DNA of 58,447 bases from Porphyromonas bennonis DSM 23058 = JCM 16335 (GTDB lineage Bacteria > Bacteroidota > Bacteroidia > Bacteroidales > Porphyromonadaceae): assembly GCF_000375645.1 (NCBI RefSeq), contig NZ_AQWR01000007.1:104-58550 (forward strand). The letters run 5' to 3'. The notes beneath the pieces are model-generated. The model searched no databases and was not told the origin of the DNA. It worked only from the letters and a program-made list of their open reading frames with translations. Shown piece after piece: positions 2,412 through 47,281 of this stretch (the first letter of the stretch is position 1; each line of letters begins with the position of its first letter). Made by a program: the position numbers and the translations under genes.

Positions 2412-2427
2412 CTAATACCGGTATTAG
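2412..2427. repeat. 16-bp intergenic palindrome, site A (single copy)
   Basis: CTAATACCGGTATTAG, a perfect palindrome, and the only site in the window where the element occurs once. It lies between the divergent bamD and tRNA-Tyr promoters, about 100 bp from each -7 box. It matches the repeat unit of the arrays at 7110, 16129, 26729, 39787 and 47222. Confidence 0.9.
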
Positions 2428-2519
2428 AGATACGTCTTATAATAGGGACAGCTTGGCGCCCCCTATCGTTACTGCCTGACGACCGCCACTGTCGTATTGT
2501 GCAATAGGAACCTTTTATC

Positions 2520-2527
2520 TACCTTTG
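2520..2527 (+). promoter_or_regulatory. Promoter for tRNA-Tyr (and perhaps rho)
   Basis: TACCTTTG with TTG at 2497-2499, 20 bp upstream: a full Bacteroidota promoter. No second clear promoter is seen before rho, so read-through from here into rho is possible. Confidence 0.7.
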
Positions 2528-2582
2528 CACCAAGTAGGGAGGGATCTAGTTGTGGTACGCTGTCACCACCTCCATCTATCAA

Positions 2583-2665
2583 GCGCAGATACCAAAGTGG
2601 CCAAATGGGGCTGACTGTAAATCAGCTGGTTTTCACCTTCGGTGGTTCGAATCCGCCTCTGCGCA
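2583..2665 (+). tRNA. tRNA-Tyr (anticodon GTA)
   Basis: Acceptor arms GCGCAGA (2583-2589) and TCTGCGC (2658-2664) pair fully, with discriminator A at 2665. The anticodon stem GCTGA/TCAGC holds loop CTGTAAA, anticodon GTA. The T-loop GGTTCGAATCC and a long variable arm (class II) fit bacterial tRNA-Tyr. CCA is not encoded. Confidence 0.95.
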
Positions 2666-2758
2666 CTTCATTCATCATTACCCTTTACCCCATCCTCAGG
2701 TTCACGTCTTCTACCTAATGACGTGCCACACTGAGCGACTGGCGGATCGATGCTTCTA

Positions 2759-2774
2759 ACCCCCGATCGGGGGT
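2759..2774. promoter_or_regulatory. Perfect palindrome in the rho leader
   Basis: ACCCCCGATCGGGGGT is self-complementary over 16 bp and lies 100 bp upstream of the rho start codon. As RNA it would form a short G-C hairpin with a small loop and no following U-run. A role in rho autoregulation, or as the 3' end of the tRNA-Tyr transcript, is only a guess. Confidence 0.45.
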
Positions 2775-2874
2775 GTCGCTATGGGACAAGACCTCAGGAC
2801 TACAAGTGAGATCCCCGACCATCGTATCCGAGTAAGCCGATGGGTCTAAAGTAAATTCATCCAAACAACATATC

Positions 2875-4692
<1,818 letters not shown>

Positions 4693-4697
4693 TTGCG

Positions 4698-5396: not shown

Positions 5397-5400
5397 CGAA

Positions 5401-6117: not shown

Positions 6118-6118
6118 T

Positions 6119-6913: not shown

Positions 6914-6995
6914 GCGGCTGTGGCGTAATTGGTAGCCGCGCCAGACTTAGGATCTGGTGGAGAAATCCGTAAGGGTTCGAGTCCCTTCAGCCGCA
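6914..6995 (+). tRNA. tRNA-Leu (anticodon TAG)
   Basis: Acceptor arms GCGGCTG (6914-6920) and CAGCCGC (6988-6994) pair, with discriminator A. Anticodon stem CCAGA/TCTGG holds loop CTTAGGA, anticodon TAG. The variable arm is long (class II), and the T-arm is GGGTTCGAGTCCC. Confidence 0.95.
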
Positions 6996-7109: not shown

Positions 7110-7191
7110 CTATTACCGGTATTAGTCGAAACTGTTAGCGGTATTAGTTTTCCCTATTACCGCTAATAGTTTTCCCTAAACCCGATATTAG
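7110..7191. repeat. Palindrome array B (four units, 22-bp period)
   Basis: Units start at 7110, 7132, 7154 and 7176, an exact 22-bp period: CTATTACCGGTATTAG, CTGTTAGCGGTATTAG, CTATTACCGCTAATAG, CTAAACCCGATATTAG. The 6-bp linkers are different or pyrimidine-rich. The array lies between the tRNA-Leu terminator and the ispG promoter, so it is probably not transcribed. Confidence 0.92.
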
Positions 7192-14848: not shown

Positions 14849-16030
14849 TCACTTGCGAGAGTCCCGCCGCTGCTGTCTCACCCCCTTGGACCGACCGGAC
14901 GAGCCACCCTGAGAGCGCCTCCTATTCCGACCATTACGCGACCGCTTAGGACGAGAGGCTTCCCGAGACTTGTCGAAGCGGGAGACACTCTCCTCCGATA
15001 GGATGTCACTCACCCGGCTGAGTGGGGAGACCTGCTCCTCCTCGGTGTCAGAGACGAGGGAGACGGGCTGTACGCCGGCACGATTTTGATCGATTACCTC
15101 CAGAGCTCGCTCCTTGCTGATCGTCACCACCTCACGCTGCTTCGACGGAGCGCCCCCGGTGGAGATATAGGAGACCTTACCGGCGAGGGTGTCCGCCTTG
15201 AGGAACGCATAGACCCCACGCTGACACTCCAGCCGCACATCTCTCGGTGGCAGCGAGCTCTGAGCCTCGGCGTAGGTGTCTCGCTCATAGTTGAGACAGC
15301 ACTTCAGCTTAGCACACTGACCGGCAAGCTTCTGAGGATTGATGGCAATATCCTGCAGGCGAGCCACATTAGTACTGACGGAGTGGAAGCTGGTCATCCA
15401 CCCCGAGCAGCAGAGCTGTCGCCCGCAGGGACCTATACCACCGATCCGCCCCGCCTCCTGACGGGCACCGATCTGCCTCATCTCCACACGTATGTGGAAT
15501 GCCTCCGCCAGCTCTCGGATCAGCTGCCGGAAGTCCACCCTATGGTCTGCGATGTAGTAGAAGATCGCCTTCTGCCCATCTCCCTGATACTCCACGTCCC
15601 CGATCTTCATATCCAGCCCGAGCCGCTTTGCGATCTGGCGGCTGCCGATCATCGTCTCGTGCTCCTTCGCCTTGCTCTCCTCATACTTCTGCAGGTCGAG
15701 CGGACGTGCTAAGCGATAGATGGTCTTGGGCTGCTCCGGAGGAGTGACCCCGAGCTTACGCATCTGGAGATCCACCAGCCGACCGGTGAGCGAGACCCGC
15801 CCGATATCGTGACCGGGAGAGGCCTCGACAGCCACCATGTCACCCTTGGCGAGGGGGAGACGAAGATTATTTAGGAAAAACTCTTTGCGGGTGTTCTTGA
15901 ATTGTACCTCCACGTACGGATGGTCGTCCAGAGACTCCGGCACGTCGTAGAAGTAATCGTATGTATCCAACTTCCCACTATTGCCCGCAACTGACGGGCA
16001 CCTGGTGGGAGAGCCATTATCTTGTGTCAT
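14849..16030 (-). CDS. ricT: PSP1-domain protein RicT
   Basis: 393 residues. The PSP1 region contains the cysteine set GPCGRQLCCSGW and GQCAKLKCCLNYE, matching RicT (YaaT), which in Bacillus holds a [4Fe-4S] cluster with RicA/RicF and helps RNase Y maturation. Bacteroidota lack the full Bacillus complex, so the role here is inferred. The last about 55 residues are Arg/Ser/Lys-rich and probably disordered or nucleic-acid binding. First gene of the minus-strand ricT-gldH unit, with a -7 box at 16069-16076. Confidence 0.9.
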   Translation of the reverse strand: MTQDNGSPTRCPSVAGNSGKLDTYDYFYDVPESLDDHPYVEVQFKNTRKEFFLNNLRLPLAKGDMVAVEASPGHDIGRVSLTGRLVDLQMRKLGVTPPEQPKTIYRLARPLDLQKYEESKAKEHETMIGSRQIAKRLGLDMKIGDVEYQGDGQKAIFYYIADHRVDFRQLIRELAEAFHIRVEMRQIGARQEAGRIGGIGPCGRQLCCSGWMTSFHSVSTNVARLQDIAINPQKLAGQCAKLKCCLNYERDTYAEAQSSLPPRDVRLECQRGVYAFLKADTLAGKVSYISTGGAPSKQREVVTISKERALEVIDQNRAGVQPVSLVSDTEEEQVSPLSRVSDILSEESVSRFDKSREASRPKRSRNGRNRRRSQGGSSGRSKGVRQQRRDSRK

Positions 16031-16068
16031 ATAATACTCGACTTGACTTTGATGGTCTTGCGACTACA

Positions 16069-16076
16069 CAAAGGTA
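16069..16076 (-). promoter_or_regulatory. Promoter -7 box for ricT
   Basis: TACCTTTG on the minus strand, 38 bp before the ricT ATG. Array C begins 53 bp upstream of it. Confidence 0.65.
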
Positions 16077-16128
16077 GCAAAATGAGGGGACAGGACTATC
16101 GCCACCGCGGGTGCCTGATCTCGCAAAA

Positions 16129-16210
16129 CTAATACCGGTAATAGTCAAAACTAATACCGGTAAGAGATTACACTAATATCGGTAATAGATAACACTAATA
16201 CCGGTAATAG
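16129..16210. repeat. Palindrome array C (four units, 22-bp period)
   Basis: Units at 16129, 16151, 16173 and 16195, an exact 22-bp period: CTAATACCGGTAATAG, CTAATACCGGTAAGAG, CTAATATCGGTAATAG, CTAATACCGGTAATAG. Linkers TCAAAA, ATTACA and ATAACA differ. It is the most regular of the arrays and sits upstream of the ricT promoter, 72 bp beyond the stop of the phosphoesterase gene. Confidence 0.93.
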
Positions 16211-16282
16211 AATTAACCTGTTGGCAGAGTATGATTTACCGAGTAAAACACTTACAGAGAGCTATCAGATGCTTCGTCGTGC

Positions 16283-17488
16283 TTAGGGATAACTTTTCCT
16301 ATCCACACAGAGCGAGTCCAGCAGGACCGCCCCCTCCCGATAGACTCTCACCCGAAGCTCATCGGAGGTGACCAGCATGATGCCATAGTAGCGCGCTCCG
16401 CTCTCAGAGGCGACATGTCGCTCCGGATCCTGTACGGAGTAGGTCTTGTGCGCCGTGCTTAGTCCTATGTAGTGAGGTCCGTCGCCATCGGGATCCCGAT
16501 CGTGGGCAAAGATATGGTCATGTCCTGCCAGCACAAGGTCCACCCCACAGCGACGGAAGAGGGGACCGAGCAGACTGTTATTTAGGAGGTTAAATCGGTT
16601 TTTCGTCCCGGAGTAGACCGGGTGATGAGCGCAGACCACTAGGAAGGGCTGATCCTTCCGCTCCATCAGCACCCGCTCCAGCCAGGGACGCTGTGAGCCG
16701 AAGGACCAGAAGAGGGAGTTGGAGTCGTAGCAGACCACCCGCATATCGGGGTAGTCGATATAGTAGGCGTGCCCTACCCTCTCCTCGGGACCATTGTCAG
16801 GGTAGTCGAGGACATACTCCCAGCGATCATCCACATCGTACATCAGGCCCGCTTCATTCTCATGATCGCCGATCACGGTGATCAGAGGGATGCGCGGTGC
16901 CACAGAGGCAAAGGCATCGTAGTACCGTCTCCAGTACTGATCATGAGGGCGCTCAATCAGGTCTCCCACCTGGATCCATGCCGCCGCATCGGGGTGCGCC
17001 CTATACAAGCTGTCCATCAGCGGTCGCGTATCATCGCCCCAAGTGTCCTGTACATCTCCGATAAGCACAAAGGTCTGAAGGGTATCCGACGGGATGACGA
17101 GCGTGTCCCGATAGGCCTCCACCCCATCACCTGAGGTGATCGTGTAGGGGTACCGCCCCACCTCAAGGGAGGGAATAGTCACACTCTGCACATGCGTCAC
17201 ACCGCCGTGCGTTTTTATCTCATGATGCAAGGCTCCGATCCGGAAGAGGAGACTATCACCGCCGTAGAGGCGGAGGATGTCCCCGCTGCGATCCGATCCG
17301 GACACCCAGGAGACGACACGCCCACGCAAGCCATCCTCCCGAGCGACCAGCTGCACCCGCTGCACACTGTCCGACAGGACGTACTCCGGCTCGATAAGGG
17401 GAGCGATCCAGTCAGACCAATTGTAACCCACTGTCCCGGTACAAGCGGCTAATAACGAAGCTGAGACGATCCTTATGATCTTACCCAT
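16283..17488 (-). CDS. Lipoprotein metallophosphoesterase (purple acid phosphatase-like)
   Basis: 401 residues. A signal with lipobox LAAC places a lipidated Cys at 16. Residues about 25-130 look like a beta-sandwich, as in purple acid phosphatases. The catalytic domain shows block II GDLIE, CAHHPVY and block V GHDH. Two positions differ from the usual metallophosphoesterase blocks: GDVQD in place of a DxH and GDHE in place of GNHE. Substrate unknown; the product should face the periplasm or cell surface. Monocistronic, divergent from ppiD. Confidence 0.8.
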   Translation of the reverse strand: MGKIIRIVSASLLAACTGTVGYNWSDWIAPLIEPEYVLSDSVQRVQLVAREDGLRGRVVSWVSGSDRSGDILRLYGGDSLLFRIGALHHEIKTHGGVTHVQSVTIPSLEVGRYPYTITSGDGVEAYRDTLVIPSDTLQTFVLIGDVQDTWGDDTRPLMDSLYRAHPDAAAWIQVGDLIERPHDQYWRRYYDAFASVAPRIPLITVIGDHENEAGLMYDVDDRWEYVLDYPDNGPEERVGHAYYIDYPDMRVVCYDSNSLFWSFGSQRPWLERVLMERKDQPFLVVCAHHPVYSGTKNRFNLLNNSLLGPLFRRCGVDLVLAGHDHIFAHDRDPDGDGPHYIGLSTAHKTYSVQDPERHVASESGARYYGIMLVTSDELRVRVYREGAVLLDSLCVDRKSYP

Positions 17489-17518
17489 AGGGTCTTATTA
17501 TTATGTTTATCAGACACG

Positions 17519-17526
17519 CAAATTTA
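17519..17526 (-). promoter_or_regulatory. Promoter for the phosphoesterase gene
   Basis: TAAATTTG on the minus strand with TTG (CAA at 17547-17549) 20 bp upstream. Confidence 0.65.
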
Positions 17527-17625
17527 GTAACACGTCCCAACTTGACCAAGCTGGTAAGCCGGACTTTCGGCACAAAAGCATGGGCGCCTTCCTGTTTTGC
17601 ATTTGCCTAAGTGTCAAAAACGTGG

Positions 17626-17633
17626 TACCTTCG
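17626..17633 (+). promoter_or_regulatory. Promoter for the PpiD-like gene
   Basis: TACCTTCG, one change from consensus, with TTTG at 17602-17605, 20 bp upstream. It sets the start codon at 17674 rather than an in-frame codon at 17611. Confidence 0.65.
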
Positions 17634-17673
17634 CACGATATTAGATCGTACTTGTACGCTTACAACCGAAACA

Positions 17674-19812
17674 ATGGCAACATTAGAGAAACTAAGAAGC
17701 AAAGCCGGATGCCTTATCGCCGCAGTAGGTCTCGGCATGGTCGCTTTTATCCTCGGAGACCTGGTCACTGGGGGAAGTGCCCTGTGGAGAGACAGCAAGA
17801 TGACAGCATTCTCTGTCAATGGCAATAAGGTCCGCATCGAGGACTACCAGCAGCATGTCAATGCGATGAATGAGCAGATGCGTGCGCAGGGTCAGTCCCT
17901 CAACTCCGACCAGACGGTACAGCTCAATAATCAGATCTTCGGCACCATCGTCTCCAATATGGTACTCCACGACGAGGCGGGCAAGATCGGTCTGAGCATC
18001 ACTCCTGCTGAGACCTTTGACCTTATCCAAGGTCAGAATGTCTCGCCCATCATCCGTCAGCAATTTACGGATCCCAATACAGGAGAGTTCAATAGAGCAC
18101 AGCTTCTTACGTTCCTCAAGCAGCTCAATGCGAAGGAGAATTACAGCCCTGAGCAGCAGTCGCAGATCGACCAGATGCGGAGCATGTGGGCTGAGACGGA
18201 GACCCAAGTGAGAGACCTCCGACTCCAGGAGAAGTATCTCGGACTCCTCTCCAAGGCTATCGTAGCGAATAAGCTCGAGGTGGCTCGTGAGACCGAGTAC
18301 AATAAGACGGTCCAGAACCTCACCTACGTCGGTCGTCGCACGATCGCTCTGCCTGACTCCGCTGTCACGGTAGCTGATGCGGAGATCAAGGACTACTACA
18401 ATGCGCACAAGGACTACTTCCGCACCGATGCCGGGGCTCACGTGGACGTCATCTACGCCTCCATCGATCCCTCAGAGGCAGACTATAAGGCTGCAGAGGA
18501 GGACATCCGGTCTGCGCGCGAGGAGCTGATCGCCGGTAAGGATCCCGCTCTCGTGCTCTCTGACTACAGCGATGTGCCCTACGCTGATACTTACATCACT
18601 GCCGAGGACATCAATACCCCCTCGATGCCTACGGAGATCGCAAGCTTCATCACCACAGCGGAAGTGGGCTCTGTCAGTGAGATCGTCCCGCAGGACAAGA
18701 ACTTCCTCGTCGCTAAGATCATCAGCCGCAAGCAGGCTCCCGAGTCTCTGCTCGTGAGCCACATCGTACTCCCGCCCGCCGGTACACCAAATGCCCCCGA
18801 GGTGAACGCTGACAGTCTCCTCACCGCTCTCAAGGCTGCGCCCGAGACCTTTGCCACGGCTGCCCAGACCTACTCCCTCGACCGCAACTCCTCCGCTCAG
18901 GGCGGTCAGATCGGCTGGCTCACCGAGGCGATGGCATCCAATTACATCGGTCAGGACTTTGCTCAGGCTGTCTACTCCGCTCAGGTGGGAGTCCCCTTCT
19001 CCTTTACCTCCAAGTATGGTGAGCACATCATCCTCGTTTCTGAGGCCAAGCCAGTGGTCGATAAGTTTAAGGTCGCCCTTGCAGCCAAGGAGGTGACCGC
19101 CTCCACGGAGACGCAGACACGGATCTACAATAACCTCAGCTCTTTCCTGACTTCAAATAAGGACAAGGATCTGACTCAGGAGGCTCTCAACGCCGGCTAC
19201 CAGGTACTCCAGGATCAGCTGATCTCCTCCTCTCAGCCCTCCATTGCCCCCGGCATCAGCAACAGCCGCGACATCGTCACCTGGACGATGCAGAATAAGG
19301 AGGGGACGATCTCTCCGATCAAGGAGGCCGATGAAAAGTACGTCGTCACCCGCGTCGGAAAGAAGTTTGCCGAGGGCTTCATGCCCATCGAGGTGGTGAA
19401 GGATCAGATCTCTGCACTCCTCGCCAATCAGAAGAAGGCAGATCTCCTCTACGACCAGATGATGAGCGCTGACCACTCCTCACTCGAGGCGTACGCAGGT
19501 GCGATCGGTGCCTCCGTCGACTCTCTCAGCTTTGTCAAGTACAGCACCACCAGGCTCGAGAGCCTCGGTGTGGAGCCGGGAATCAACTCTGCTGCCGCTG
19601 TCGCAGGGCTGAACACCCCGACCCCTGTAAAGGGTCTCAATGGCGTCTACCTCGTCAATGTCCTCTCCCGTGAGGCTGATGCACAGGCGAGCGATGCAGC
19701 GACGATCAAGACCTCACTCGAGCGCTCACTGCAGGGTATGATCCGCGCAACGGCTCTCCAGACGGTCATCTCCAAGGCTAAGATCTCTGACAACAGATAC
19801 AACTTCTTCTAA
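17674..19812 (+). CDS. PpiD-like membrane-anchored peptidyl-prolyl isomerase
   Basis: 712 residues. One N-terminal membrane anchor (residues about 10-32, GCLIAAVGLGMVAFILGDLV) is followed by a SurA_N-type chaperone region (NKVRIEDYQQHVNAMNEQMR). A parvulin rotamase domain around residues 360-465 carries SHIVLPP and GQIGWLT. This is the architecture of PpiD/SurA, a periplasmic folding helper for secreted and outer-membrane proteins. Start at 17674 follows the promoter box. A strong terminator follows, so it is probably a single-gene unit. Confidence 0.9.
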   Translation: MATLEKLRSKAGCLIAAVGLGMVAFILGDLVTGGSALWRDSKMTAFSVNGNKVRIEDYQQHVNAMNEQMRAQGQSLNSDQTVQLNNQIFGTIVSNMVLHDEAGKIGLSITPAETFDLIQGQNVSPIIRQQFTDPNTGEFNRAQLLTFLKQLNAKENYSPEQQSQIDQMRSMWAETETQVRDLRLQEKYLGLLSKAIVANKLEVARETEYNKTVQNLTYVGRRTIALPDSAVTVADAEIKDYYNAHKDYFRTDAGAHVDVIYASIDPSEADYKAAEEDIRSAREELIAGKDPALVLSDYSDVPYADTYITAEDINTPSMPTEIASFITTAEVGSVSEIVPQDKNFLVAKIISRKQAPESLLVSHIVLPPAGTPNAPEVNADSLLTALKAAPETFATAAQTYSLDRNSSAQGGQIGWLTEAMASNYIGQDFAQAVYSAQVGVPFSFTSKYGEHIILVSEAKPVVDKFKVALAAKEVTASTETQTRIYNNLSSFLTSNKDKDLTQEALNAGYQVLQDQLISSSQPSIAPGISNSRDIVTWTMQNKEGTISPIKEADEKYVVTRVGKKFAEGFMPIEVVKDQISALLANQKKADLLYDQMMSADHSSLEAYAGAIGASVDSLSFVKYSTTRLESLGVEPGINSAAAVAGLNTPTPVKGLNGVYLVNVLSREADAQASDAATIKTSLERSLQGMIRATALQTVISKAKISDNRYNFF

Positions 19813-19836
19813 GCCTTAGACCAAGTCCTTAAATAG

Positions 19837-19877
19837 AAAGAGCGCCCCCCCTACAAAGGGAGGTCGCTCTTCTTTTT
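19837..19877 (+). terminator. Intrinsic terminator after the PpiD-like gene
   Basis: GAAAGAGCG and CGCTCTTC arms with inner CCCCCC/GGGAGG pairing, then a T-rich run. Confidence 0.8.
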
Positions 19878-19954
19878 CTACCCAAGCAATTACCAGGCGG
19901 CTCAATACAACAGAAGCCACGCCTGGAGCGTGATCCCGGCGTGGCTATGAGGGG

Positions 19955-20028
19955 TGACTGAGTTGGGATTCGAACCCAAGACCCACAGCTTAGAAGGCTG
20001 TTGCTCTATCCAACTGAGCTACTCAGCC
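19955..20028 (-). tRNA. tRNA-Arg (anticodon TCT)
   Basis: On the minus strand, acceptor GGCTGAG (20028-20022) pairs with CTCAGTC (19962-19956) with one G-U, discriminator A. Anticodon stem ACAGC/GCTGT holds loop CTTCTAA, anticodon TCT. T-loop GGGTTCGAATCCC. Confidence 0.95.
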
Positions 20029-20058
20029 AGAGAGTGACCCCGTCACTCATTGACCGTG

Positions 20059-20066
20059 CAAAGGTA
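20059..20066 (-). promoter_or_regulatory. Promoter -7 box for tRNA-Arg
   Basis: TACCTTTG on the minus strand, 30 bp before the tRNA 5' end. The -33 box is unclear. Confidence 0.6.
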
Positions 20067-20162
20067 CGACATTTAGCTCAAAAGTCTAAGCCTATGGTCC
20101 GCAAACTGCAACAATATAAGAGAGCACCTCAGGCTGACCGAAGTGCTCTCCTGGATAAAGAG

Positions 20163-20233
20163 TTGGAGTACGGGGATTCGAACCTCGACAGACAGAACCA
20201 AAACCTGTAGTGCTACCATTACACCATACTCCA
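20163..20233 (-). tRNA. tRNA-Gln (anticodon TTG)
   Basis: Acceptor TGGAGTA pairs with TACTCCA, discriminator A at 20163. Anticodon stem ACAGG/TCTGT (with one G-U) holds loop TTTTGGT, anticodon TTG. T-arm GAGGTTCGAATCCCC. Confidence 0.94.
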
Positions 20234-20247
20234 GTCTGATATTGCCG

Positions 20248-20255
20248 CAAAGGTA
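20248..20255 (-). promoter_or_regulatory. Promoter for tRNA-Gln
   Basis: TACCTTTG on the minus strand with TTG (CAA at 20276-20278) 20 bp upstream. Confidence 0.7.
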
Positions 20256-20311
20256 CTGAAAAAGGGGCAAGGCGGCAAGGTGAAAATCTTGGCACCCGGG
20301 CAATTTTTTGC

Positions 20312-20319
20312 TACCTTTG
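20312..20319 (+). promoter_or_regulatory. Promoter for tRNA-Lys
   Basis: TACCTTTG with TTG at 20289-20291, spacing 20 bp. It is back to back with the tRNA-Gln promoter. Confidence 0.7.
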
Positions 20320-20347
20320 CGGGGTCTACGGGTGTTTTTCATCCGCC

Positions 20348-20420
20348 GGTTCGCTAGCTCAGTTGGTAGAGCACAACACTTTTAATGTTGGGGTCTCGGG
20401 TTCGAACCCCGAGCGAGCCA
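20348..20420 (+). tRNA. tRNA-Lys (anticodon TTT)
   Basis: Acceptor GGTTCGC (20348-20354) pairs with GCGAGCC (20413-20419), discriminator A. Anticodon stem CAACA/TGTTG holds loop CTTTTAA, anticodon TTT. T-arm CGGGTTCGAACCCCG. Confidence 0.95.
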
Positions 20421-20425
20421 CCGGT

Positions 20426-20472
20426 AAGGAGAGAGAGTCGATATGGTGTCGGTTCTCTCTCCTTCTCCTTTT
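20426..20472 (+). terminator. Intrinsic terminator after tRNA-Lys
   Basis: AAGGAGAGAGA (20426-20436) pairs with TCTCTCTCCTT (20454-20464), followed by CTCCTTTTA. Confidence 0.75.
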
Positions 20473-20540
20473 ATGTAACGGCATTCCTATGCATACAAAT
20501 TGGTGGGATGTGATTAACCAAAAATGTCAGTTAATAGAGC

Positions 20541-20548
20541 TATATTTG
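20541..20548 (+). promoter_or_regulatory. Promoter -7 box for the GH2 gene
   Basis: TATATTTG, 69 bp before the ATG at 20617. A frame extending up to 20524 would begin before this promoter, so it is not used. Confidence 0.55.
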
Positions 20549-20616
20549 CTCTCCGAGGACCTTTGGAAAAGGTCTGTCGGGATAGACTACTGAGTACCAC
20601 CTTAAGATACAACCTT

Positions 20617-23600
20617 ATGAAGTCAAAGATATTAGGTCTCGCCATGAGTGCCCTCTTCACTATAGGGGCGGGGGCACAGACCTTCATGGAGTGGCAGGAT
20701 CCGGCTGTCAACGAGATTAATCGCCTACCGATGCGGGCACGCTTCTTCCCCTACGCCACTGAGCAAGAGGCAAGGGTGGATGACCCGCTGCGCTCCAGTC
20801 GTACCCTGTCGCTCGAGGGCGAGTGGAAGTTTGCCGCCACCAGAGATGTCAAGGGATACCCCACCGACTTTATGAAGCCTGGCTTTGACGACAGCGCCTG
20901 GCGCACGATACCTATCCCGGGACTGTGGGAGAAAAACGGCGTCTGCGATCCGATGTACCTCAATGTCGGATATCCCTGGCGCGGACACTTCAAGAATCAA
21001 CCTCTCGCCAAGGAGCCGGTACCCTATAAGGACAATATCGTCGGCTCCTACCGTCGAGAGATCGTCGTACCGGCGGACTGGAGCGGGGAGGATATCACGC
21101 TCTACATCGGGGCGGTCAGCTCCTGCGCCTATGTCTGGGTCAATGGCGACTTCGTGGGCTATACGGAGGATGGGAGACTGGAGGCGGAGTTTGACGTCAC
21201 CCCATTCATCAAGCCGGGTGAGACGAATACGATCGCCTTCCGCGTCTTCCGCTGGTGCGATGGGACTTACCTGGAGGATCAGGATATGTTTCGCCACACC
21301 GGATTTCACCGTGACGTTTACCTCTACGCCCGTCCCAAGTCACACCTGGCCGATATTACGATCACGCAGGACTTAATCAATGACTACAAGGACGGGCTGC
21401 TGGCTCTCCGACTCAAGTCTACCGGCTCACCCCGGTATGAGCTTACCCTCACTGATGCCCTCGGACAGATGGTCTGGGAGCGCTCGCTACCGGGCTTCAA
21501 TGTCAACACCATCCGAGCCATTATCCCCGGTGTCGCTCCCTGGACCGCCGAGACCCCCAATCTCTACAAGCTCGAGATCAAGAGCTTCGTCGACGGGAAG
21601 CTCTCCGAGGTGTCCCGCTTCGATATCGGTTTCCGCAACATCAGGATCGAGGACACTTTGCTCAAGGTTAATGGCAAGCCGGTCCTCATCAAGGGTGCCA
21701 ATCGCCACGACACCGACCCCAATACCGGATGCATCGTGTCGCGCGAGCGAATGCTAGAGGACGTGAAGCTGGCGAAGCAATTTAATATGAATGCCATCCG
21801 CACCTGTCACTATCCCAATGATCCCTACTTCTACAAGCTCTGTGACGTCTACGGTCTCTATGTCTGTGCCGAGGCGAACATTGAGTCTCACGGTATGGGC
21901 TACGGAGCGGAGTCGCTCGCCAAGCAGCCGGAGTGGGCGGTTCCCCATGTGGAGCGAAACGTCCGGCAGGTGGCCTCGAGAGGCATTCACCCGTCGATCA
22001 TCATTTGGTCGATGGCCAATGAGGCTGGGGATGGAGAAAACTTCGCTGCCGCCCGCTCGGCAATCAAGAAGCTCGACACCACCCGACCCATCATGCTCGA
22101 GCGTGCTATTGACGGTCCCAATACCGACATCTACGGCAACATGTACCGCCGCCCTAGTGAGCTCCTCGCCTATGCGAATGGCAACCCTTCCAAGCCTTTC
22201 ATTCTTGCGGAGTACGCTCACGCCATGGGAAATAGCCAGGGCTGCATGACCGACTACATGGAGCTCTTCCACACCTATCCGGTTCTGCAGGGTGGCTTCA
22301 TCTGGGACTTTGTTGACCAAGCGCAGTATATGGAGAAGCCTGACGGCACCACCGTCAGAGGCTACGGCGGCGACTGGAACGACTACGACCCGAGCGACAA
22401 TAACTTCTGCGATAACGGACTCTTCGACTGCACCCGCATGCCTAAGCCCAATGCGGTGGAGGCAAAGTACGCCTACCAGCCGGTCCTCACCACCATGGAA
22501 GGACAGCTCTCTGACGGACGCGTGACGCTGCTGATCAAGAACGACAACGACTTCCGTCCGCTCGACTATCTGTCCCTGAGCTATGCCGTCACTGTCGACG
22601 GACAGGAGGTGCACTCACGCTCCATGGTCTGCCCCGTCGTCCAGCCCGGTGAGACCGAGCGGCTGGAGATCAAGCTCCCTGCGATCGATGCCACCGGAAA
22701 GGATGTCTTCCTCAATGTCGAGTATCGCACACTGGAGGATCAGCCGCTCATCCCGGCCGACCACCTCGTAGCACGCAACCAGCTCACGCTCGCCGAGCAT
22801 ACCGAGCGGATGCTGCCACTTGGTCAGTACGGCTATGTGACGCTGGAAGAAATGTCAGAGCAGACGATCTACTTCTTAGTCAATCACGACTGCGTCGTCT
22901 CCTTCGACAAGACAAGCGGCTTCCTTACCGGCTACAGCATGGGCGACAGTCAGTACATGGCAGAGGGGTCGGCACTGAAGCCCTCCTTCTATCGAGCCCC
23001 GACCGACAACGATGAGGGCGCCGGTCTCCAGCGGAAGTGGCAGGCGTGGAGAGATCCGGAGATGAAGCTCACCTCGCTCAGCTACGAGGTGATCAATGCA
23101 CGCGGTCATGTGGTCGCCAAGTATGATCTGCCCGGTGTCCGGTGTGACCTGACGATGGAGTACACGATCGATGTGGACGGAAAGGTCTACATCTCTCAGA
23201 AGCTCGATCCCCGAAGCAACGACAAGGATATGCCGGAGCTCTTCCGCTTCGGTCTGCAGATGGAGATGCCTGTCTCCTACAGCCAGATCCACTACTACGG
23301 TAGAGGTCCTATCGAGACCTACCCCGACCGTAAGTCGAATGCATTCATCGGCTGGTACGACCTCGCTGTCAGCGATGCTTACTTCTCCTACGACCGTCCT
23401 CAGGAGAGCGGTCTCCACAGCGATCTCCGCTACTGGTCTGTCATCAATGAACAGGGCGAGGGACTGGGCTTTGTGTCGGGTAAAAGCTTCTACGCCTCCG
23501 CCCTGCCCTACAGCGTTGCTCAGCTGGAGGACTTCCCCGAGAAGGCGCAGCGCCACTCGGAGCAACTGACCCCAAGTAAGGACAGGGTCTTCCTCCACAT

Positions 23601-23724
23601 CGACGCCGAGCATCTCGGCCTCGGAGGCGTCGACTCCTGGGGATCCATCCCACCGGAGCGGTGGCGACTCCCATACGGCAGCTACAGCCAGGAGATCTGT
23701 TTCTTCCCTGTAGCCAGACGCTGA
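20617..23724 (+). CDS. Glycoside hydrolase family 2 beta-galactosidase (LacZ type)
   Basis: 1035 residues with a Sec signal (MKSKILGLAMSALFTIGAGA, cleavage near 20), so the enzyme is periplasmic or surface-exposed. Domain order: sugar-binding domain, Ig-like domain, TIM barrel with acid/base E469 (SMANEAGDG) and nucleophile E532 (ILAEYAHAMGNS), then the C-terminal Bgal small-chain domain (FYRAPTDNDEG). This is the full LacZ architecture. In Bacteroidota such enzymes often trim host glycans, but no SusCD pair is adjacent, so the substrate is not defined. Its own promoter and terminator make it a single-gene unit. Confidence 0.94.
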   Translation: MKSKILGLAMSALFTIGAGAQTFMEWQDPAVNEINRLPMRARFFPYATEQEARVDDPLRSSRTLSLEGEWKFAATRDVKGYPTDFMKPGFDDSAWRTIPIPGLWEKNGVCDPMYLNVGYPWRGHFKNQPLAKEPVPYKDNIVGSYRREIVVPADWSGEDITLYIGAVSSCAYVWVNGDFVGYTEDGRLEAEFDVTPFIKPGETNTIAFRVFRWCDGTYLEDQDMFRHTGFHRDVYLYARPKSHLADITITQDLINDYKDGLLALRLKSTGSPRYELTLTDALGQMVWERSLPGFNVNTIRAIIPGVAPWTAETPNLYKLEIKSFVDGKLSEVSRFDIGFRNIRIEDTLLKVNGKPVLIKGANRHDTDPNTGCIVSRERMLEDVKLAKQFNMNAIRTCHYPNDPYFYKLCDVYGLYVCAEANIESHGMGYGAESLAKQPEWAVPHVERNVRQVASRGIHPSIIIWSMANEAGDGENFAAARSAIKKLDTTRPIMLERAIDGPNTDIYGNMYRRPSELLAYANGNPSKPFILAEYAHAMGNSQGCMTDYMELFHTYPVLQGGFIWDFVDQAQYMEKPDGTTVRGYGGDWNDYDPSDNNFCDNGLFDCTRMPKPNAVEAKYAYQPVLTTMEGQLSDGRVTLLIKNDNDFRPLDYLSLSYAVTVDGQEVHSRSMVCPVVQPGETERLEIKLPAIDATGKDVFLNVEYRTLEDQPLIPADHLVARNQLTLAEHTERMLPLGQYGYVTLEEMSEQTIYFLVNHDCVVSFDKTSGFLTGYSMGDSQYMAEGSALKPSFYRAPTDNDEGAGLQRKWQAWRDPEMKLTSLSYEVINARGHVVAKYDLPGVRCDLTMEYTIDVDGKVYISQKLDPRSNDKDMPELFRFGLQMEMPVSYSQIHYYGRGPIETYPDRKSNAFIGWYDLAVSDAYFSYDRPQESGLHSDLRYWSVINEQGEGLGFVSGKSFYASALPYSVAQLEDFPEKAQRHSEQLTPSKDRVFLHIDAEHLGLGGVDSWGSIPPERWRLPYGSYSQEICFFPVARR

Positions 23725-23735
23725 CAATTGTTTCC

Positions 23736-23778
23736 AAAGAGGAGCTCCTTCCTATCTGAGGGGGCTCCTCTTTTTTTA
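23736..23778 (+). terminator. Intrinsic terminator after the GH2 gene
   Basis: AAAGAGGAGCTCC and GGGGCTCCTCTTT pair over 13 bp with one U-G, ending in a run of T. Confidence 0.85.
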
Positions 23779-23810
23779 TACTAAAAATAGTGTAAGCTGA
23801 GAGGTTTGGG

Positions 23811-23818
23811 TACCTTTG
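23811..23818 (+). promoter_or_regulatory. Promoter -7 box for the P-type ATPase
   Basis: TACCTTTG, 29 bp before the ATG at 23848. Confidence 0.6.
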
Positions 23819-23847
23819 CTGAGCATTCATCCATCACTAAGGATATT

Positions 23848-26538: not shown

Positions 26539-26558
26539 AGCCTCCCCACATATCTATA

Positions 26559-26603
26559 AGCGAGGGACTGCCCGCACACCATACGTGCGGGCAGTCCCTC
26601 GCT
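26559..26603. repeat. Long perfect hairpin with GGGACTGC core
   Basis: AGCGAGGGACTGCCCGCAC (26559-26577) is perfectly complementary to 26585-26603, with a 7-nt loop. It sits 20 bp after the ATPase stop but has no U-run on either side. It shares GGGACTGC with hairpins at 30746 and 35930. It may still mark the 3' end of the transcript. Confidence 0.85.
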
Positions 26604-26728
26604 TCGTATGTGTCGAGTTCATCGTCTGGTCATCAAGTGTCACCCGAAGGAAAATCGAAGCCCGAAAAGTCGGTGAGAACGAAAAATGCACACATAACTG
26701 AAGATCAGCGGTTAGCAGTCACCCGATT

Positions 26729-26810
26729 CTATTACCGGTATTAGATGATTCTAATACCGGTAATAGTGTCAACTAATACCGACTATAGTGATGACTAATA
26801 CCGATATTAG
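26729..26810. repeat. Palindrome array D (four units, 22-bp period)
   Basis: Units at 26729, 26751, 26773 and 26795: CTATTACCGGTATTAG, CTAATACCGGTAATAG, CTAATACCGACTATAG, CTAATACCGATATTAG. Exact 22-bp period. The third unit is degenerate in its right half, and the linkers are unrelated to each other. Confidence 0.92.
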
Positions 26811-27056
26811 TCTGAGGGTATCTCGATGCAGAGAGATAGAGTCTCACTGCTCTCGGTTGCTTTATCCGGACACCGGGCATATTTTCTCAGTGGAAGGAAT
26901 GATTTTCGAAGCAAGAAGAGAAATACAGACAAAGGTCGACGTTCAGGAGCTCCATGCAACACAGAGCACTTCATACGGGACCACAGTCGGGAATTCGCAC
27001 TCCGGAGGACTTCTGTCAGGTGATGGCACGGAGCGATCATTACGGGAGGAAATAGG

Positions 27057-27064
27057 TACATTTG
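27057..27064 (+). promoter_or_regulatory. Promoter -7 box for the YitT gene
   Basis: TACATTTG, 61 bp before the ATG at 27126. Confidence 0.6.
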
Positions 27065-27125
27065 CGCAGATCTTTTGAGAAAAGACCTTATCTAATCCAA
27101 AGAGACCCTTTATTCAGCAACAAAG

Positions 27126-28157
27126 ATGAGTAACACCGTACCACCATCGGGGGAGAGGACCGACAAGTGGCAGCGTGCGCTTGACGCAACGGTCAGCACC
27201 CTTAAGACGACCAAGTTTTGGTCCGAGCTGTTTATTATGACGGCAGCGGTATTCATGTGCGCCGTGGCCATTCACTTCTTCCTTTACCCAAGTGGGATCA
27301 TCACAGGATCGGCGACAGGTGTGGCGATCGTCTTCAATCGACTCATGCCGGGCATCACGACAGGTAACTTCATCCTGATCATCAATGTCCTGCTCCTGAT
27401 AGTCGCCTTCATCATCCTGGGGCCGGAGTTTGGCGCCAAGACGGTCTACACCTCGATCATCCTCGGTCCATTTGTCGACTTCCTGGCCGACGTGGCACCG
27501 ATAGAGGGGTCGCTCTTTGCCACCGAAATAGCGGGGACGATGTACTCCGATCTCTGGTCGGATGCGCTCTGGTTTGTCCTCATCATCGGCATAGCGCAGG
27601 CGATCCTCTTCTCCGTCAATGCCTCAACCGGGGGACTGGACATCGTGGGGAAGATCATCACGAAGTACACCCACATGCCCATCGGTACATCGGTGGCGAT
27701 AGTGGGGATACTCTCCTGCTTTACCGCACTCCTCACCAGCTCTCTCGGCAACGTGCTTATGGGCATCTTAGTCACCTGGATCAACGGACTGATCATCGAC
27801 TACTTCATGAGCAAGATGAGTACGAAGATCCGCGTGATGATCGTCGTCGATGACCCGACGAAGACCAAGGACTACATCCTCCATACGATCAATCGTGGCG
27901 TCACGATCCACGAGGTCTATGGTGGCTACACGGGCAAGAAGAAGTATCAGCTGGAGACCGAGCTGGATCAGAAGGACTTCACGAAGCTACGGCAGTACCT
28001 CAGCACCACGACGGAGAATACCTTCGTCACCGCCGATCCGGTGAGCGATGTCTATGGTATCTGGCGGGAGAAGCCGCACCTCAAACAGCTGGAGGAGGAG
28101 GCTGAGGTAGAGAGCACGGTAACCATCCCCAATAGTCGCCGCATCAAGCCGGAGTAA
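27126..28157 (+). CDS. YitT family membrane protein (DUF161/DUF2179)
   Basis: 343 residues. Five or six hydrophobic segments fill residues about 35-225; the first carries AVAIHFFLYPSGIITGSATG, the YitT repeat signature (F..P..i..GG..G). Residues about 235-320 form the soluble C-terminal DUF2179 domain (DYILHTINRGVTIHEVYGGY). The family is widespread and of unknown transport function. The downstream porin-like gene starts 6 bp after its stop, so both are probably cotranscribed. Confidence 0.88.
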   Translation: MSNTVPPSGERTDKWQRALDATVSTLKTTKFWSELFIMTAAVFMCAVAIHFFLYPSGIITGSATGVAIVFNRLMPGITTGNFILIINVLLLIVAFIILGPEFGAKTVYTSIILGPFVDFLADVAPIEGSLFATEIAGTMYSDLWSDALWFVLIIGIAQAILFSVNASTGGLDIVGKIITKYTHMPIGTSVAIVGILSCFTALLTSSLGNVLMGILVTWINGLIIDYFMSKMSTKIRVMIVVDDPTKTKDYILHTINRGVTIHEVYGGYTGKKKYQLETELDQKDFTKLRQYLSTTTENTFVTADPVSDVYGIWREKPHLKQLEEEAEVESTVTIPNSRRIKPE

Positions 28158-39786: not shown

Positions 39787-39846
39787 CTATTACCGGTAAT
39801 AGTCGCAACTAATACCGGTATTAGACTTCACTAATACCGGTATCAG
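39787..39846. repeat. Palindrome array E (three units, 22-bp period)
   Basis: Units at 39787, 39809 and 39831: CTATTACCGGTAATAG, CTAATACCGGTATTAG (both perfect palindromes) and CTAATACCGGTATCAG. It lies between the terminator at 39709-39752 and the GSCFA promoter, ending 55 bp before its -7 box. Confidence 0.93.
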
Positions 39847-39901
39847 ATTGAGGGCTGTGGAGTGGACTATGCCGACTCTGCTTTTTGCGACCGATTATCG
39901 G

Positions 39902-43440: not shown

Positions 43441-43463
43441 GTGCTTAGAGATGACTCTCTCTG

Positions 43464-43550
43464 TGCCCGAAGCGGGACTTGAACCCGCACGACCTTATTC
43501 GGGTCAAAGGAGTTTAAGTCCTTCGTGTCTACCGATTCCACCATTCGGGC
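43464..43550 (-). tRNA. tRNA-Leu (anticodon TAA)
   Basis: Minus-strand acceptor GCCCGAA (43550-43544) pairs with TTCGGGC, discriminator A. Anticodon stem AAGGA/TCCTT holds loop CTTAAAC, anticodon TAA. Long variable arm, class II. Confidence 0.95.
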
Positions 43551-43562
43551 GGCGAATCATTG

Positions 43563-43635
43563 AGCGGAAAACGAGGCTCGAACTCGCGACCTCAACCTTG
43601 GCAAGGTTGCGCTCTACCAACTGAGCTATTTCCGC
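43563..43635 (-). tRNA. tRNA-Gly (anticodon GCC)
   Basis: Minus-strand acceptor GCGGAAA pairs with TTTCCGC, discriminator T. Anticodon stem CAACC/GGTTG holds loop TTGCCAA, anticodon GCC. 12 bp upstream of tRNA-Leu, in one transcript. Confidence 0.95.
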
Positions 43636-43664
43636 AAAACCCATCCCCCATCGGTTTAGTGACG

Positions 43665-43672
43665 CAAAGTTA
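43665..43672 (-). promoter_or_regulatory. Promoter for tRNA-Gly/tRNA-Leu
   Basis: TAACTTTG on the minus strand with TTG (CAA at 43692-43694) 19 bp upstream, which falls beyond the typA stop side. Confidence 0.65.
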
Positions 43673-43703
43673 CGATTTTATCGCAACTCCGCAATGTGCC
43701 TGC

Positions 43704-45506: not shown

Positions 45507-45530
45507 CTTTTTCGTCCTAAAATGTGCGTG

Positions 45531-45538
45531 CAAAGTTA
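45531..45538 (-). promoter_or_regulatory. Promoter -7 box for typA
   Basis: TAACTTTG on the minus strand, 24 bp before the typA ATG. Confidence 0.6.
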
Positions 45539-45666
45539 CACAAAATGAAATGAACCCCACCAGAGCAACCCGGCCCGATTCTCCACCCGGCTCCGCAAGA
45601 ATGGCAGCCCGCCCTCGGGACTTAAACAAATGGCTTCGAGTATTGCGATAGATCCAACGTTTTGAT

Positions 45667-45674
45667 TACATTTG
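45667..45674 (+). promoter_or_regulatory. Promoter for the Sm/CSD/TPR gene
   Basis: TACATTTG with TTG at 45643-45645, spacing 21 bp; 60 bp before the ATG. Confidence 0.6.
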
Positions 45675-45734
45675 TAAGACTTAGAGCAGTAGCACCTATT
45701 GTGCTGAGATTTCCTCTTCGGTTACCTTTTTATC

Positions 45735-47117
45735 ATGATAGAATTTTTAAAGTCTAATTTTCAGACCGGTGATCTGATTGAGATCACGACGGACTCGGAG
45801 ACCATCCGGGGTCAGATCGATTTTTTCGGGCCGGACTACATCGTCCTCCGACTAAGTAATAATCAAGTCAAGGGCATAAGCGAGTCAAGCATACGCACAT
45901 TTGCCTCCGTGAGCAACCCTCCTGCCGAGGCGTCCGAACCCGCACAGCCGGAGGAAGAGAGGGAAGCCCCCTCTGCAGCCACCCCCGACCAGGCTCCACA
46001 GATCGAGACTGAGCCTGCCAAGCCATTTACAAAGTACAAGCCGGGCGACCGCGTCCCGCTATCCATCCTCACGGAGAGAGACCCCTCATTACTCAACGAC
46101 TGGAGCAAGAAGGGACAGACAAAGAAGAGAAATGAAGAAGCGGTGGAGGGCGTGCGTGAGGCCTACGTACAGGCTAAGAGCAACAGCAGGAAAGAGGATC
46201 AGGTAGTAGTCTCTCCCACCGGCAAGATCGTTCAGCTCAGACCGTCCTACCAATTTGGCTTCATAGACACCACCGACCAGAAACGCTATTACTTCAATCG
46301 CTCCGACCTCCTCGACGACACCCTCAGGGACTTCTCCGGCGACAACATCGAGGTCGCCTTCCTACCGGGATCCAATCACAAGGGACTCTCTGCCAAGGCT
46401 ATCGTACGCCCTCAGACGATCGACAAGCTGCTGGACATCGTGATGGAGCTGACAAGCCAAGGAGACCTCTTCCGCTCTCGCAATCTGCTCAATATGATCG
46501 CCGAGAAGCACCCCAAGAATCAGAGCACCCGCTCTATCCTGGAGGCTCTCGAGAGTGTACTCAGCAAGGGGCGCGACCAGGAGGACTCGGACGAGGACTC
46601 ACAGGCCTACGACGAGGGAATAGACCATCTGGAGGACAAGGACTTCCAGGCTGCGCTCAAGTCCTTCTACACATCCATAGAGGAGGGGGTCAAGGTAGAG
46701 CAGGCCATAAAGCAGTCCATCACAGCCTACGTACGGATGTACACCGCGACGGAAGACCTGGAGACCAGGGAGACAACTCGTCACGCAGCTCTCGACTTCA
46801 TCAATGAGAAAAAGAGCGACCTGCCGAATAACATTAGTACGCTCTTTGTCCTCGAGAATGCGTACTTCGCACTCGGGGAGTACTCCGCTCACATCGATGT
46901 GGTGGAGGAGGTGATCAACTTCTGCGCCAAGAAGAGGGACATTGCGAAGTACCTCTTCTACCTACGCAAGGCGGCTCAGAGCTACTACCGTCTCGGCGAC
47001 TACGGTCGTGCCTTGGACTCCGCTCAGGAGGGGCTGGAGCGCGAGCCGGAGGACGAGCAGCTGATCAAGCTGAGGGACATGGCTCAGGATGAGCTGAATA
47101 TACGACTCCGCAAGTAA
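45735..47117 (+). CDS. Uncharacterised protein with Sm-like, cold-shock-like and TPR parts
   Basis: 460 residues, no signal peptide. Residues 1-50 (TGDLIEITTDSETIRGQIDF, then DYIVLRLSNNQVKGI) look like an Sm/SH3-type small barrel. About 55-145 is acidic, Pro-rich linker. About 155-205 (PTGKIVQLRPSYQFGFIDTT, then RYYFNRSDLLDD) resembles a cold-shock/S1-type nucleic-acid fold. From about 230 to the end are TPR-like helices (YFALGEYSAHIDVVEEVINF, YYRLGDYGRALDSAQEGLE). I recognise no named family. The architecture suggests an RNA-linked scaffold in the cytoplasm. Single gene with promoter and terminator. Confidence 0.6.
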   Translation: MIEFLKSNFQTGDLIEITTDSETIRGQIDFFGPDYIVLRLSNNQVKGISESSIRTFASVSNPPAEASEPAQPEEEREAPSAATPDQAPQIETEPAKPFTKYKPGDRVPLSILTERDPSLLNDWSKKGQTKKRNEEAVEGVREAYVQAKSNSRKEDQVVVSPTGKIVQLRPSYQFGFIDTTDQKRYYFNRSDLLDDTLRDFSGDNIEVAFLPGSNHKGLSAKAIVRPQTIDKLLDIVMELTSQGDLFRSRNLLNMIAEKHPKNQSTRSILEALESVLSKGRDQEDSDEDSQAYDEGIDHLEDKDFQAALKSFYTSIEEGVKVEQAIKQSITAYVRMYTATEDLETRETTRHAALDFINEKKSDLPNNISTLFVLENAYFALGEYSAHIDVVEEVINFCAKKRDIAKYLFYLRKAAQSYYRLGDYGRALDSAQEGLEREPEDEQLIKLRDMAQDELNIRLRK

Positions 47118-47141
47118 CCCTCCCTCAGATCAAACACGGAC

Positions 47142-47175
47142 GAGCACTCGAGATCAACCTCTCGGGTGCTCTCTC
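47142..47175 (+). terminator. Intrinsic terminator after the Sm/CSD/TPR gene
   Basis: GAGCACTCGAGA (47142-47153) pairs with TCTCGGGTGCTC (47160-47171) with one U-G, then TCTCTTA. Confidence 0.75.
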
Positions 47176-47221
47176 TTATGTCACCGAGGTGGCTCCACAG
47201 CGTCACCGCACAGAGAAAAAT

Positions 47222-47281
47222 CTAAACCCGATATTAGTGATCACTAAACTCGGTAATAGAGATCACTAATACCGGGTTTAG
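47222..47281. repeat. Palindrome array F (three units, 22-bp period)
   Basis: Units at 47222, 47244 and 47266: CTAAACCCGATATTAG, CTAAACTCGGTAATAG, CTAATACCGGGTTTAG. The first is identical to the fourth unit of array B. The outer half-sites (CTAAACCC and GGGTTTAG) make the whole array a rough inverted repeat. Linkers TGATCA and AGATCA. Confidence 0.9.

What the first reader, a model, noticed from the sequence alone, without database searches (positions are those of the whole stretch)
2412..47281. A dispersed 16-bp palindrome forms arrays with an exact 22-bp pitch
Nineteen full copies lie in six intergenic places: 2412 (one), 7110 (four), 16129 (four), 26729 (four), 39787 (three) and 47222 (three). 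In all five arrays the start-to-start distance is always 22 bp, while the 6-bp linkers are unrelated in sequence. Half-site consensus is CTAWWACC. Keeping spacing but not linker sequence is what a dimeric DNA-binding protein on one helical face (about two turns) would demand; a plain tandem duplication would keep the linkers. I know of no described element with this pattern; the nearest idea is the 23-bp repeats in a Porphyromonas gingivalis MITE, which I cannot compare here. The ligand and role are unknown.
Basis: partly seen in the sequence, partly recalled or inferred. Interest (0 to 1): 0.85.

Follow-up and report, generated by a model that had tools for sequence, protein, structure and literature searches.

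The report
Evenly spaced, helically phased palindrome arrays
Porphyromonas chromosomes carry short rows of a protein-binding-type DNA word, each copy exactly two helix turns from the next and the rows placed about every 10,000 bases between genes, as if marking out the chromosome; related species keep the layout but use different words, and the protein that reads them is unknown.

Summary
The genome holds 488 copies (reversed control 5). In 845,548 bp read there are 75 arrays: 50 of four sites, 21 of three, one of two, three single; pitch always 22 bp. They lie between genes, evenly spaced (mean 10.6 kb, CV 0.40; random real gaps give 0.81, 0 of 4,000 trials as even). In a close relative orthologous arrays keep sites (86% identity) while linkers drift (46%). 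Half-sites vary independently: dimer recognition, not hairpins. At least 31 of 71 arrays are polar composites, with a TCTGAGGGC cap at one end and a CTG-CAG arm at the other. Other Porphyromonadaceae carry arrays of the same pitch but different palindromes, also evenly spaced in the best-sampled genomes. Neither gene direction nor gene function beside arrays is uniform. Best reading: assembly sites for an oligomerising dimeric DNA-binding protein that organises the chromosome in ~10-kb steps; pitch and selection are shown, the role is inferred. The binder was not found; Lrp, ParB and Crp/Fnr are disfavoured, TetR unresolved. A copied dispersed element is the main rival. No description was found in the library searched; P. 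gingivalis BrickBuilt differs.

The parts
2412..2427 (.). single perfect site, CTAATACCGGTATTAG
7110..7191 (.). 4-site array, pitch 22 (sites 7110, 7132, 7154, 7176)
16129..16210 (.). 4-site array, pitch 22 (16129, 16151, 16173, 16195)
26729..26810 (-). 4-site array, pitch 22 (26729, 26751, 26773, 26795); polar composite read on the - strand; CTATAGTC half-site in its second site in that reading
26811..26819 (-). cap of the polar composite (TCTGAGGGT on + strand, outward)
26685..26728 (-). arm of the polar composite with the CTG...CAG inverted repeat (44 bp examined)
39787..39846 (.). 3-site array, pitch 22 (39787, 39809, 39831), with a cap-like ATTGAGGGC at 39847-39855
47222..47281 (.). 3-site array, pitch 22 (47222, 47244, 47266); outermost halves carry the CTAAACCC variant

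Best explanation
Each array is an assembly site for a dimeric, sequence-specific DNA-binding protein. Shown: each 16-18-bp palindrome has two independently varying half-sites; copies are held 22 bp apart (two turns at 11 bp/turn) with freer linkers; arrays have 3-4 sites here, lie in intergenic DNA regardless of the direction of neighbours, are kept in place in a close relative, and are about 10 kb apart far more evenly than chance. Many are the middle of a polar composite with a conserved cap and arm. Inferred: dimers stacked on one face form a closed oligomer (about four dimers, perhaps wrapping or bending ~88 bp), helped by factors on cap and arm, and these complexes act as regularly placed anchors (bridges, domain boundaries or tethers) of the chromosome. 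In other lineages the protein, or a paralogue, has changed its word while the geometry was kept.
For: Copy number and pitch. Selection: 456 of 528 site bases identical vs 66 of 143 linker bases over nine orthologous arrays (alignments). Half-site logic: T6 and A9 together 0 of 263 (12.6 expected), bases 3/12 complementary 123 vs 134.5 expected, 6/9 135 vs 163.3; hetero-halves 61 vs 50 expected. Even spacing against random choice of real gaps >=100 bp (>=150 bp in brackets): this genome 0 (0) of 4,000; G014 0 (1); G006 0 (1); G005 with two motif types 3 (3). No promoter/terminator bias in this genome, each gap counted for each flanking gene: array in 75 of 226 5' sides, 61 of 184 3' sides; the arm of polar composites faces a gene start in 18 of 29, the cap side in 17 of 29. 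Same pitch, other palindromes: 29 triples at 22, one at 23, none at nine other pitches in 27 sequence sets; this genome 64 of 64 at 22. Neighbours are mixed housekeeping genes.
Against: No binder identified; five families searched. The architectural role rests on spacing and lack of gene bias, not on any measurement. A mild 5' excess exists elsewhere (G014 49 of 214 vs 31 of 196; G006 16 of 36 vs 10 of 36; G002 10 of 26 vs 4 of 20). Evenness is not significant in G003 (824 of 4,000) and weak in G002 (137 of 4,000). The composites with cap and arm, and the oriented elements of G006 and G014 that keep much of their linkers, look more like copied elements than free operator rows. The site/linker contrast is partly built in, since arrays were found by the motif in both species, and most orthology tests start from array-bearing G005 loci.
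Confidence: 0.46

Rival explanations
1. A short dispersed repeat family (REP/MITE-like, polar, about 150 bp) spread by a transposase and later conserved; evenness from local insertion immunity or from selection against close copies.
For: At least 31 of 71 arrays share cap, array and arm in one polarity; G006 and G014 elements are near-uniform, oriented units; Y1 transposase genes in 5 of 11 genomes, all five array-bearing; array pairs share somewhat more linker letters than shuffles (95 pairs vs mean 69.6, max 91).
Against: G012 and G021 have arrays without Y1 transposase; linkers drift between orthologues while sites stay; flanks beyond the arm show little similarity (20 flank pairs among 150 flanks, several due to other repeats); no viral contig carries the CTA pair; random insertion does not predict even spacing.
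Confidence: 0.26
2. Operators of a very broad transcription regulator (global TF) acting cooperatively at phased sites.
For: Phased multi-operator rows are a usual design of cooperative regulators (recalled); slight 5' excess in G014, G006 and G002.
Against: In this genome 5' and 3' sides are used alike, convergent gaps included (12 of 75); polar composites do not point at gene starts; mixed neighbours; a regulon does not predict even spacing.
Confidence: 0.15
3. Hairpins acting in RNA or single strands (terminators, riboregulators, REP-type foldbacks).
For: Palindromic units; some relatives have non-palindromic central tetranucleotides between complementary halves.
Against: Partner bases do not covary; a fixed helical pitch has no role in RNA; no Rfam match at the arrays.
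Confidence: 0.03
4. Self-recognition marks (DNA uptake or defence) or nucleoid-occlusion sites like those of Noc and SlmA.
For: Intergenic, many copies, clade-specific words; a low-GC 31-kb stretch of G006 has no element.
Against: About 10 kb is sparse for uptake words (recalled). Noc and SlmA sites are largely absent near the terminus (PMC5540599 passages), while the listed part of G014's strict hits (100 of 135 forward) continues to 1.57 Mb, near the antipode of its parS-like site at 0.55 Mb (origin inferred). No second ParB in 10 of 11 genomes.
Confidence: 0.07

Closest known systems
BrickBuilt MITE minisatellite of P. gingivalis (PMC4596501; abstract and passages seen)
   Same: Intergenic, dispersed, unit near two helix turns, flanked by conserved non-repeat parts, same genus.
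   Different: 23 nt without spacers, consensus AGAYCATARTATCCTCTCRTRTG, 1 to 22.8 copies, 19 loci, ends like IS5-family inverted repeats; here 22-bp pitch with freer linkers, at most 4 copies, about 180 loci by extrapolation, other cap and arm.
22-nt tandem repeats of P. gingivalis W83, mentioned in PMC4596501 as unplaced
   Same: Same period; may be the same phenomenon.
   Different: Sequence and places not given there; the original paper was not read.
Noc and SlmA site systems (PMC5540599 passages)
   Same: Specific sites scattered over a chromosome for a non-transcriptional protein.
   Different: 41 loci in S. aureus, terminus-poor; no second ParB in 10 of 11 genomes.
Lrp-type octamer on several semipalindromes (Ah-BarR, PMC10201364 abstract and passages)
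   Same: Several dimer sites bound by one octamer with wrapped DNA; would fit a limit of four.
   Different: Lrp is absent from 10 of 38 family genomes, including all five with the CCACGTGG arrays.
REP/BIME repeats with RAYT transposases (recalled)
   Same: Species-specific intergenic palindromes in hundreds, composite and oriented.
   Different: No hairpin covariation, fixed helical phasing, Y1 transposase not universal.

Membership tests
BrickBuilt MITE | 23-nt unit with the published consensus | tested here: not met
   22-bp pitch only, different sequence
BrickBuilt MITE | leader and tail with terminal inverted repeats | tested here: inconclusive
   cap and arm exist in at least 31 of 71 arrays but differ from each other; element ends not located
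Lrp/AsnC octamer sites | an Lrp protein in every array-bearing genome | tested here: not met
   none in G014, G021, G033, G013, G026
Lrp/AsnC octamer sites | wrapping of DNA by an octamer | not testable with these tools
   needs biochemistry
Noc / ParB sites | a second ParB, or parS itself | tested here: not met
   one ParB in 10 of 11 genomes, four matches (two over the cut-off) in G021; parS-like words at <=2 mismatches lie elsewhere in 10 of 11 genomes, though in G006 and G002 no more often than the control
Crp/Fnr sites | a Crp-type HTH in every array-bearing genome | tested here: not met
   none in G021, only a below-cut-off match in G012
SlmA/TetR sites | a TetR shared by all, with a changing recognition helix | tested here: inconclusive
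   one group seen in 9 of 11 genomes with a conserved RRTLYxYF helix; not among the 3 of 6 G014 and 4 of 8 G021 TetRs fetched
REP-RAYT | hairpin with base-pair covariation | tested here: not met
REP-RAYT | Y1 transposase in the genome | tested here: inconclusive
   present in 5 of 11, absent in array-bearing G012, G021, G003 and G023; whether arrays flank it could not be read
CRISPR | long unique spacers and cas genes | tested here: not met
   spacers are 6 bp, at dozens of loci; cas genes not searched

The most novel reading that the evidence does not exclude
A chromosome-wide ruler of the family Porphyromonadaceae: nucleoprotein anchors placed every ~7-18 kb in which geometry (22-bp pitch, fixed copy number, even spacing) is under selection while the recognised word is replaced from clade to clade, and two words can share one spacing pattern within one genome (in the 200 kb read of G005, three GGGACT-type arrays fall in the three widest gaps between nine CTAATACC-type arrays).
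Probability: 0.33. Interest if true: 0.93.

Novelty: new variant of a known kind. Interest (0 to 1): 0.82.

Why it matters
How bacteria set the size of chromosomal domains is open, and few regular, sequence-encoded anchors are known. Here the sites can be read from sequence, are regular, and exist with different words in related species, so the binder could be found by one pull-down, and its co-evolution with the word and its effect on folding tested. It would also be a large component of the chromosomes of common oral and mucosal bacteria for which I found no description.

Tried and rejected
Lrp/AsnC octamer as the common binder: attractive because four dimers would explain the limit of four, rejected because array-bearing genomes lack it. 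ParB/Noc. Crp/Fnr: missing in G021. TetR: no clear universal candidate (in one search some reading frames were picked on the wrong strand, mended). RAYT: 5 of 11, not universal. KOPS-like polarity: oriented G006 elements are mixed, 67 forward and 76 reverse, and composites of both orientations alternate on contig 1. Cross-genus positional conservation G000/G014 beyond operon ends: table 7, 13, 6, 37, p = 0.059, not claimed. Phage carriage: the CTA pair is in no viral contig; the single CCACGTGG pair lies in a 71% GC contig without the other element parts. Promoter/terminator scan of 16000-27200: nothing useful. A regulon read from flanking genes: none visible in 28 proteins scanned, not all of them array neighbours.

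Both were wrong. Searches show conserved flanks and a polarity; the CTATAGTC variant marks site 2 of a polar unit seen in both orientations. I moved the best explanation from 0.50 to 0.46, the dispersed-element rival from 0.20 to 0.26, the global regulator from 0.17 to 0.15, hairpins from 0.04 to 0.03, self-recognition from 0.08 to 0.07 and the novel case from 0.35 to 0.33 for that reason. The draft also gave 42 G005 arrays; one search has 40.

Rows dropped: only G014 elements of at least 100 bp were used (34 of the 40 hits), and contigs with fewer than two arrays drop out (73 of 75 arrays used); array lists for G006, G005, G002 and G003 were set by hand. The arm motif was chosen after looking at the same flanks; its control is the offset, 31 of 36 at one offset and 5 at the other 31.

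Full report
Check of the observation. The 22-bp pitch is exact. The window lies in contig 7 of a 2.02-Mb genome in 87 contigs, which holds 488 copies at up to 2 mismatches (reversed control 5).

Anatomy in this genome. I read 845,548 bp (window plus 787,101 bp). There are 75 arrays: 50 of four sites, 21 of three, one of two and three single; none is longer than four, and no close pair of sites breaks the 22-bp step. By proportion this is about 180 arrays per genome. A detector that does not know the motif, for palindromic triples at pitch 18 to 28, finds 64, all at pitch 22 and all in these arrays. Over 263 sites the unit is CTAWTAYCGRTAWTAG, with a preferred T after it and A before it in the linker.

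Cap and arm. Read outwards, the first 14 bases and some further positions of the flanks carry information (up to 0.86 bit; control stretches 60 bp further out at most 0.07). In 31 of the 71 arrays with at least three sites (30 four-site, one three-site) a CTGCTGATAACCAG-like arm stands at one fixed offset from one end; at the 31 other offsets tried it reached the same score in 5 arrays. At the opposite end of these 31 a TCTGAGGGC-like cap scores 5 or more of 9 in 26, at the arm end in 2. Oriented this way, the half-site variant CTATAGTC lies in the left half of site 2 in 14 cases, elsewhere in 3; without orientation it appears at site 2 left (8) and site 3 right (9). So these arrays are polar composites. 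The other 38 to 40 arrays have only a weaker common boundary. In G005 at least three arrays (L037, L049, L056) show both cap (9 of 9) and arm (9 or 11 of 14). The arm faces a gene start in 18 of 29 and the cap side in 17 of 29, so the polarity ignores genes.

Dimer or hairpin. If the palindrome served as a hairpin, facing bases should covary. They do not: positions 3/12 are complementary in 123 of 263 (134.5 expected), 6/9 in 135 (163.3 expected), and the double change T6+A9 is never seen (12.6 expected). Independent half-sites with a limit on total weakness would give this.

Selection. The motif is abundant in one of the 11 other genomes of the genus, G005 (269 at up to 1 mismatch); the other ten have 0 or 1, and 49 further relatives at most 6. 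Of 40 G005 arrays tested, 16 had no flanking orthologue in the part of this genome read, 15 had one on one side (an own array within 600 bp in 8 of these), and nine had both; eight of the nine have an array in the same gap. In the reverse direction seven of nine are present (overlapping set; both misses lie where G005 has other DNA between the flanks). Over nine orthologous arrays, site bases are identical in 456 of 528 and linker bases in 66 of 143; part of that contrast is built in because arrays were found by motif. One 21-bp step was seen.

Place in the genome. Arrays are intergenic. Counting each gap once for each flanking gene, they occupy 75 of 226 5' sides and 61 of 184 3' sides here; a mild 5' excess is seen in G014 (49 of 214, 31 of 196), G006 (16 of 36, 10 of 36) and G002 (10 of 26, 4 of 20). 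Proteins scanned near arrays are mixed: Rho, Sua5, GcpE, P-type ATPases, thioredoxin, PEPCK, a TonB receptor, AcrB and others. No Rfam family matches at the window's arrays.

Even spacing. Mean 10,638 bp, CV 0.399, minimum 4,731 bp. Choosing the same number of real gaps of at least 100 bp at random gives mean CV 0.811, with 0 of 4,000 trials as even and none with so large a minimum (first 458 kb: 0 of 5,000). The same test gives 0 of 4,000 in G014 (34 elements, mean 18.1 kb), 0 in G006 (13, 7.3 kb), 3 in G005 (12 arrays of two motif types together, 17.2 kb), 137 in G002 (7, two types) and 824 in G003 (6, several types); with gaps of at least 150 bp the numbers are 0, 1, 1, 3, 123 and 1,148.

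The same geometry with other words. The triple detector on 27 sequence sets (26 from other genomes, one from this one) gives 29 hits at pitch 22, one at 23 and none at the nine other pitches. It is strict: on contig 1 of this genome it finds 8 of 14 arrays. Words seen include ATCTCCACGTGGAGAT in G014; CGACCTATATAGGTCG in G012; GCGGAATGCATTCCGC and CTTAGTTGCAACTAAG in G002; TTATTCCTAGGAATAA, AATCTCATATGAGAAT and AGGGACTTAAGTCCCT in G003; three different ones in G023. Many sets were only 13 to 20 kb, so their zeros say little; G006, G008, G009 and G011 (80 to 120 kb) gave no triple, G006 because its elements alternate two units. G014 elements have eight units, 3 + 2 different + 3; G006 elements are A-B-A-B, 143 exact copies, 67 forward and 76 reverse. 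The CCACGTGG pair pattern is found in 5 of 38 family genomes (135, 189, 44, 5 and 3 forward matches) and not in the other 33. From chromosome lengths I recall G014 as P. asaccharolytica DSM 20707 and G023 as P. gingivalis ATCC 33277; no call names them.

Which protein. Lrp would suit a four-dimer array (octamer wrapping is described for Ah-BarR, PMC10201364, abstract and passages), but 10 of 38 family genomes lack it, including all five with CCACGTGG arrays. ParB is single in 10 of 11 genomes, with parS-like words elsewhere. A Crp-type HTH is absent from G021 and below the cut-off in G012. TetR gave no clear candidate. Y1 transposases occur in 5 of 11 genomes, all array-bearing, but not in array-bearing G012, G021, G003 and G023. 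The binder remains unknown.

Known or new. Seven searches of the held open-access library listed no description of these arrays. BrickBuilt (PMC4596501, abstract and passages) differs in unit, consensus and copy range; that paper mentions unplaced 22-nt repeats in P. gingivalis W83, which may be related. A long-read study of P. gingivalis (PMC5771137, passages) says it did not annotate short repeats of 3 to 31 bp. Subscription papers and preprints were not searchable.

Verdict. Observation confirmed; phased dimer binding supported by comparison; chromosome organisation is the most likely role but inferred, with a copied-element origin and a global regulator as the main rivals.

Noticed in passing
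G000:C54:5578, C72:2903; G005:C86, C67; G006:C4:787659; G002:C6; G014:C1:377361 and 387168: Y1 (IS200/RAYT-type) transposase genes occur in five of 11 genomes checked, all array-bearing; their flanks could not be read.
   Followed up: partly
L225 (G005:C74) and L226 (G002:C10): A 215-aa TetR is 93% identical between two genomes, one of which averages about 50% to the window genome, so it is probably carried by a mobile element.
   Followed up: no
G006:C4:1-31000: Low-GC stretch (0.41 against 0.55 in the next 89 kb) without any of the 7-kb-spaced elements; perhaps acquired DNA.
   Followed up: no
upstream of arrays at G000:C11:18015 and C14:4014; G002 C1 near 69204: A second repeat, head-to-tail GTCCGAC-type units of about 9 bp, in intergenic regions of this genome, G005 and G002.
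   Followed up: no
L133 (G000), L132 (G005), L130 (G006) against L131, L134-L138: Two different Lrp/AsnC types replace each other within the genus (LSQSPVFERQ or LSPSPVFERQ against LSRAAxHQR), one copy per genome.
   Followed up: partly
flanks of G000 arrays C1:29239, C17:9987, C6:27916: Words of the form TANNTTTG, recalled as the Bacteroidetes -7 promoter box, stand 30-40 bp outside some arrays.
   Followed up: no
window 51240-51444 and 6914-6995: Cobalamin riboswitch; seven tRNA genes in the window, one ending 115 bp before the array at 7110.
   Followed up: no
L070 10605-10730 (G005:C41) and L082 745-810 (G003:C1): A GGGACTNNAGT-type array shared by G003 and G005, with nearly identical linkers in G005, so some arrays do look like tandem duplications.
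   Followed up: partly
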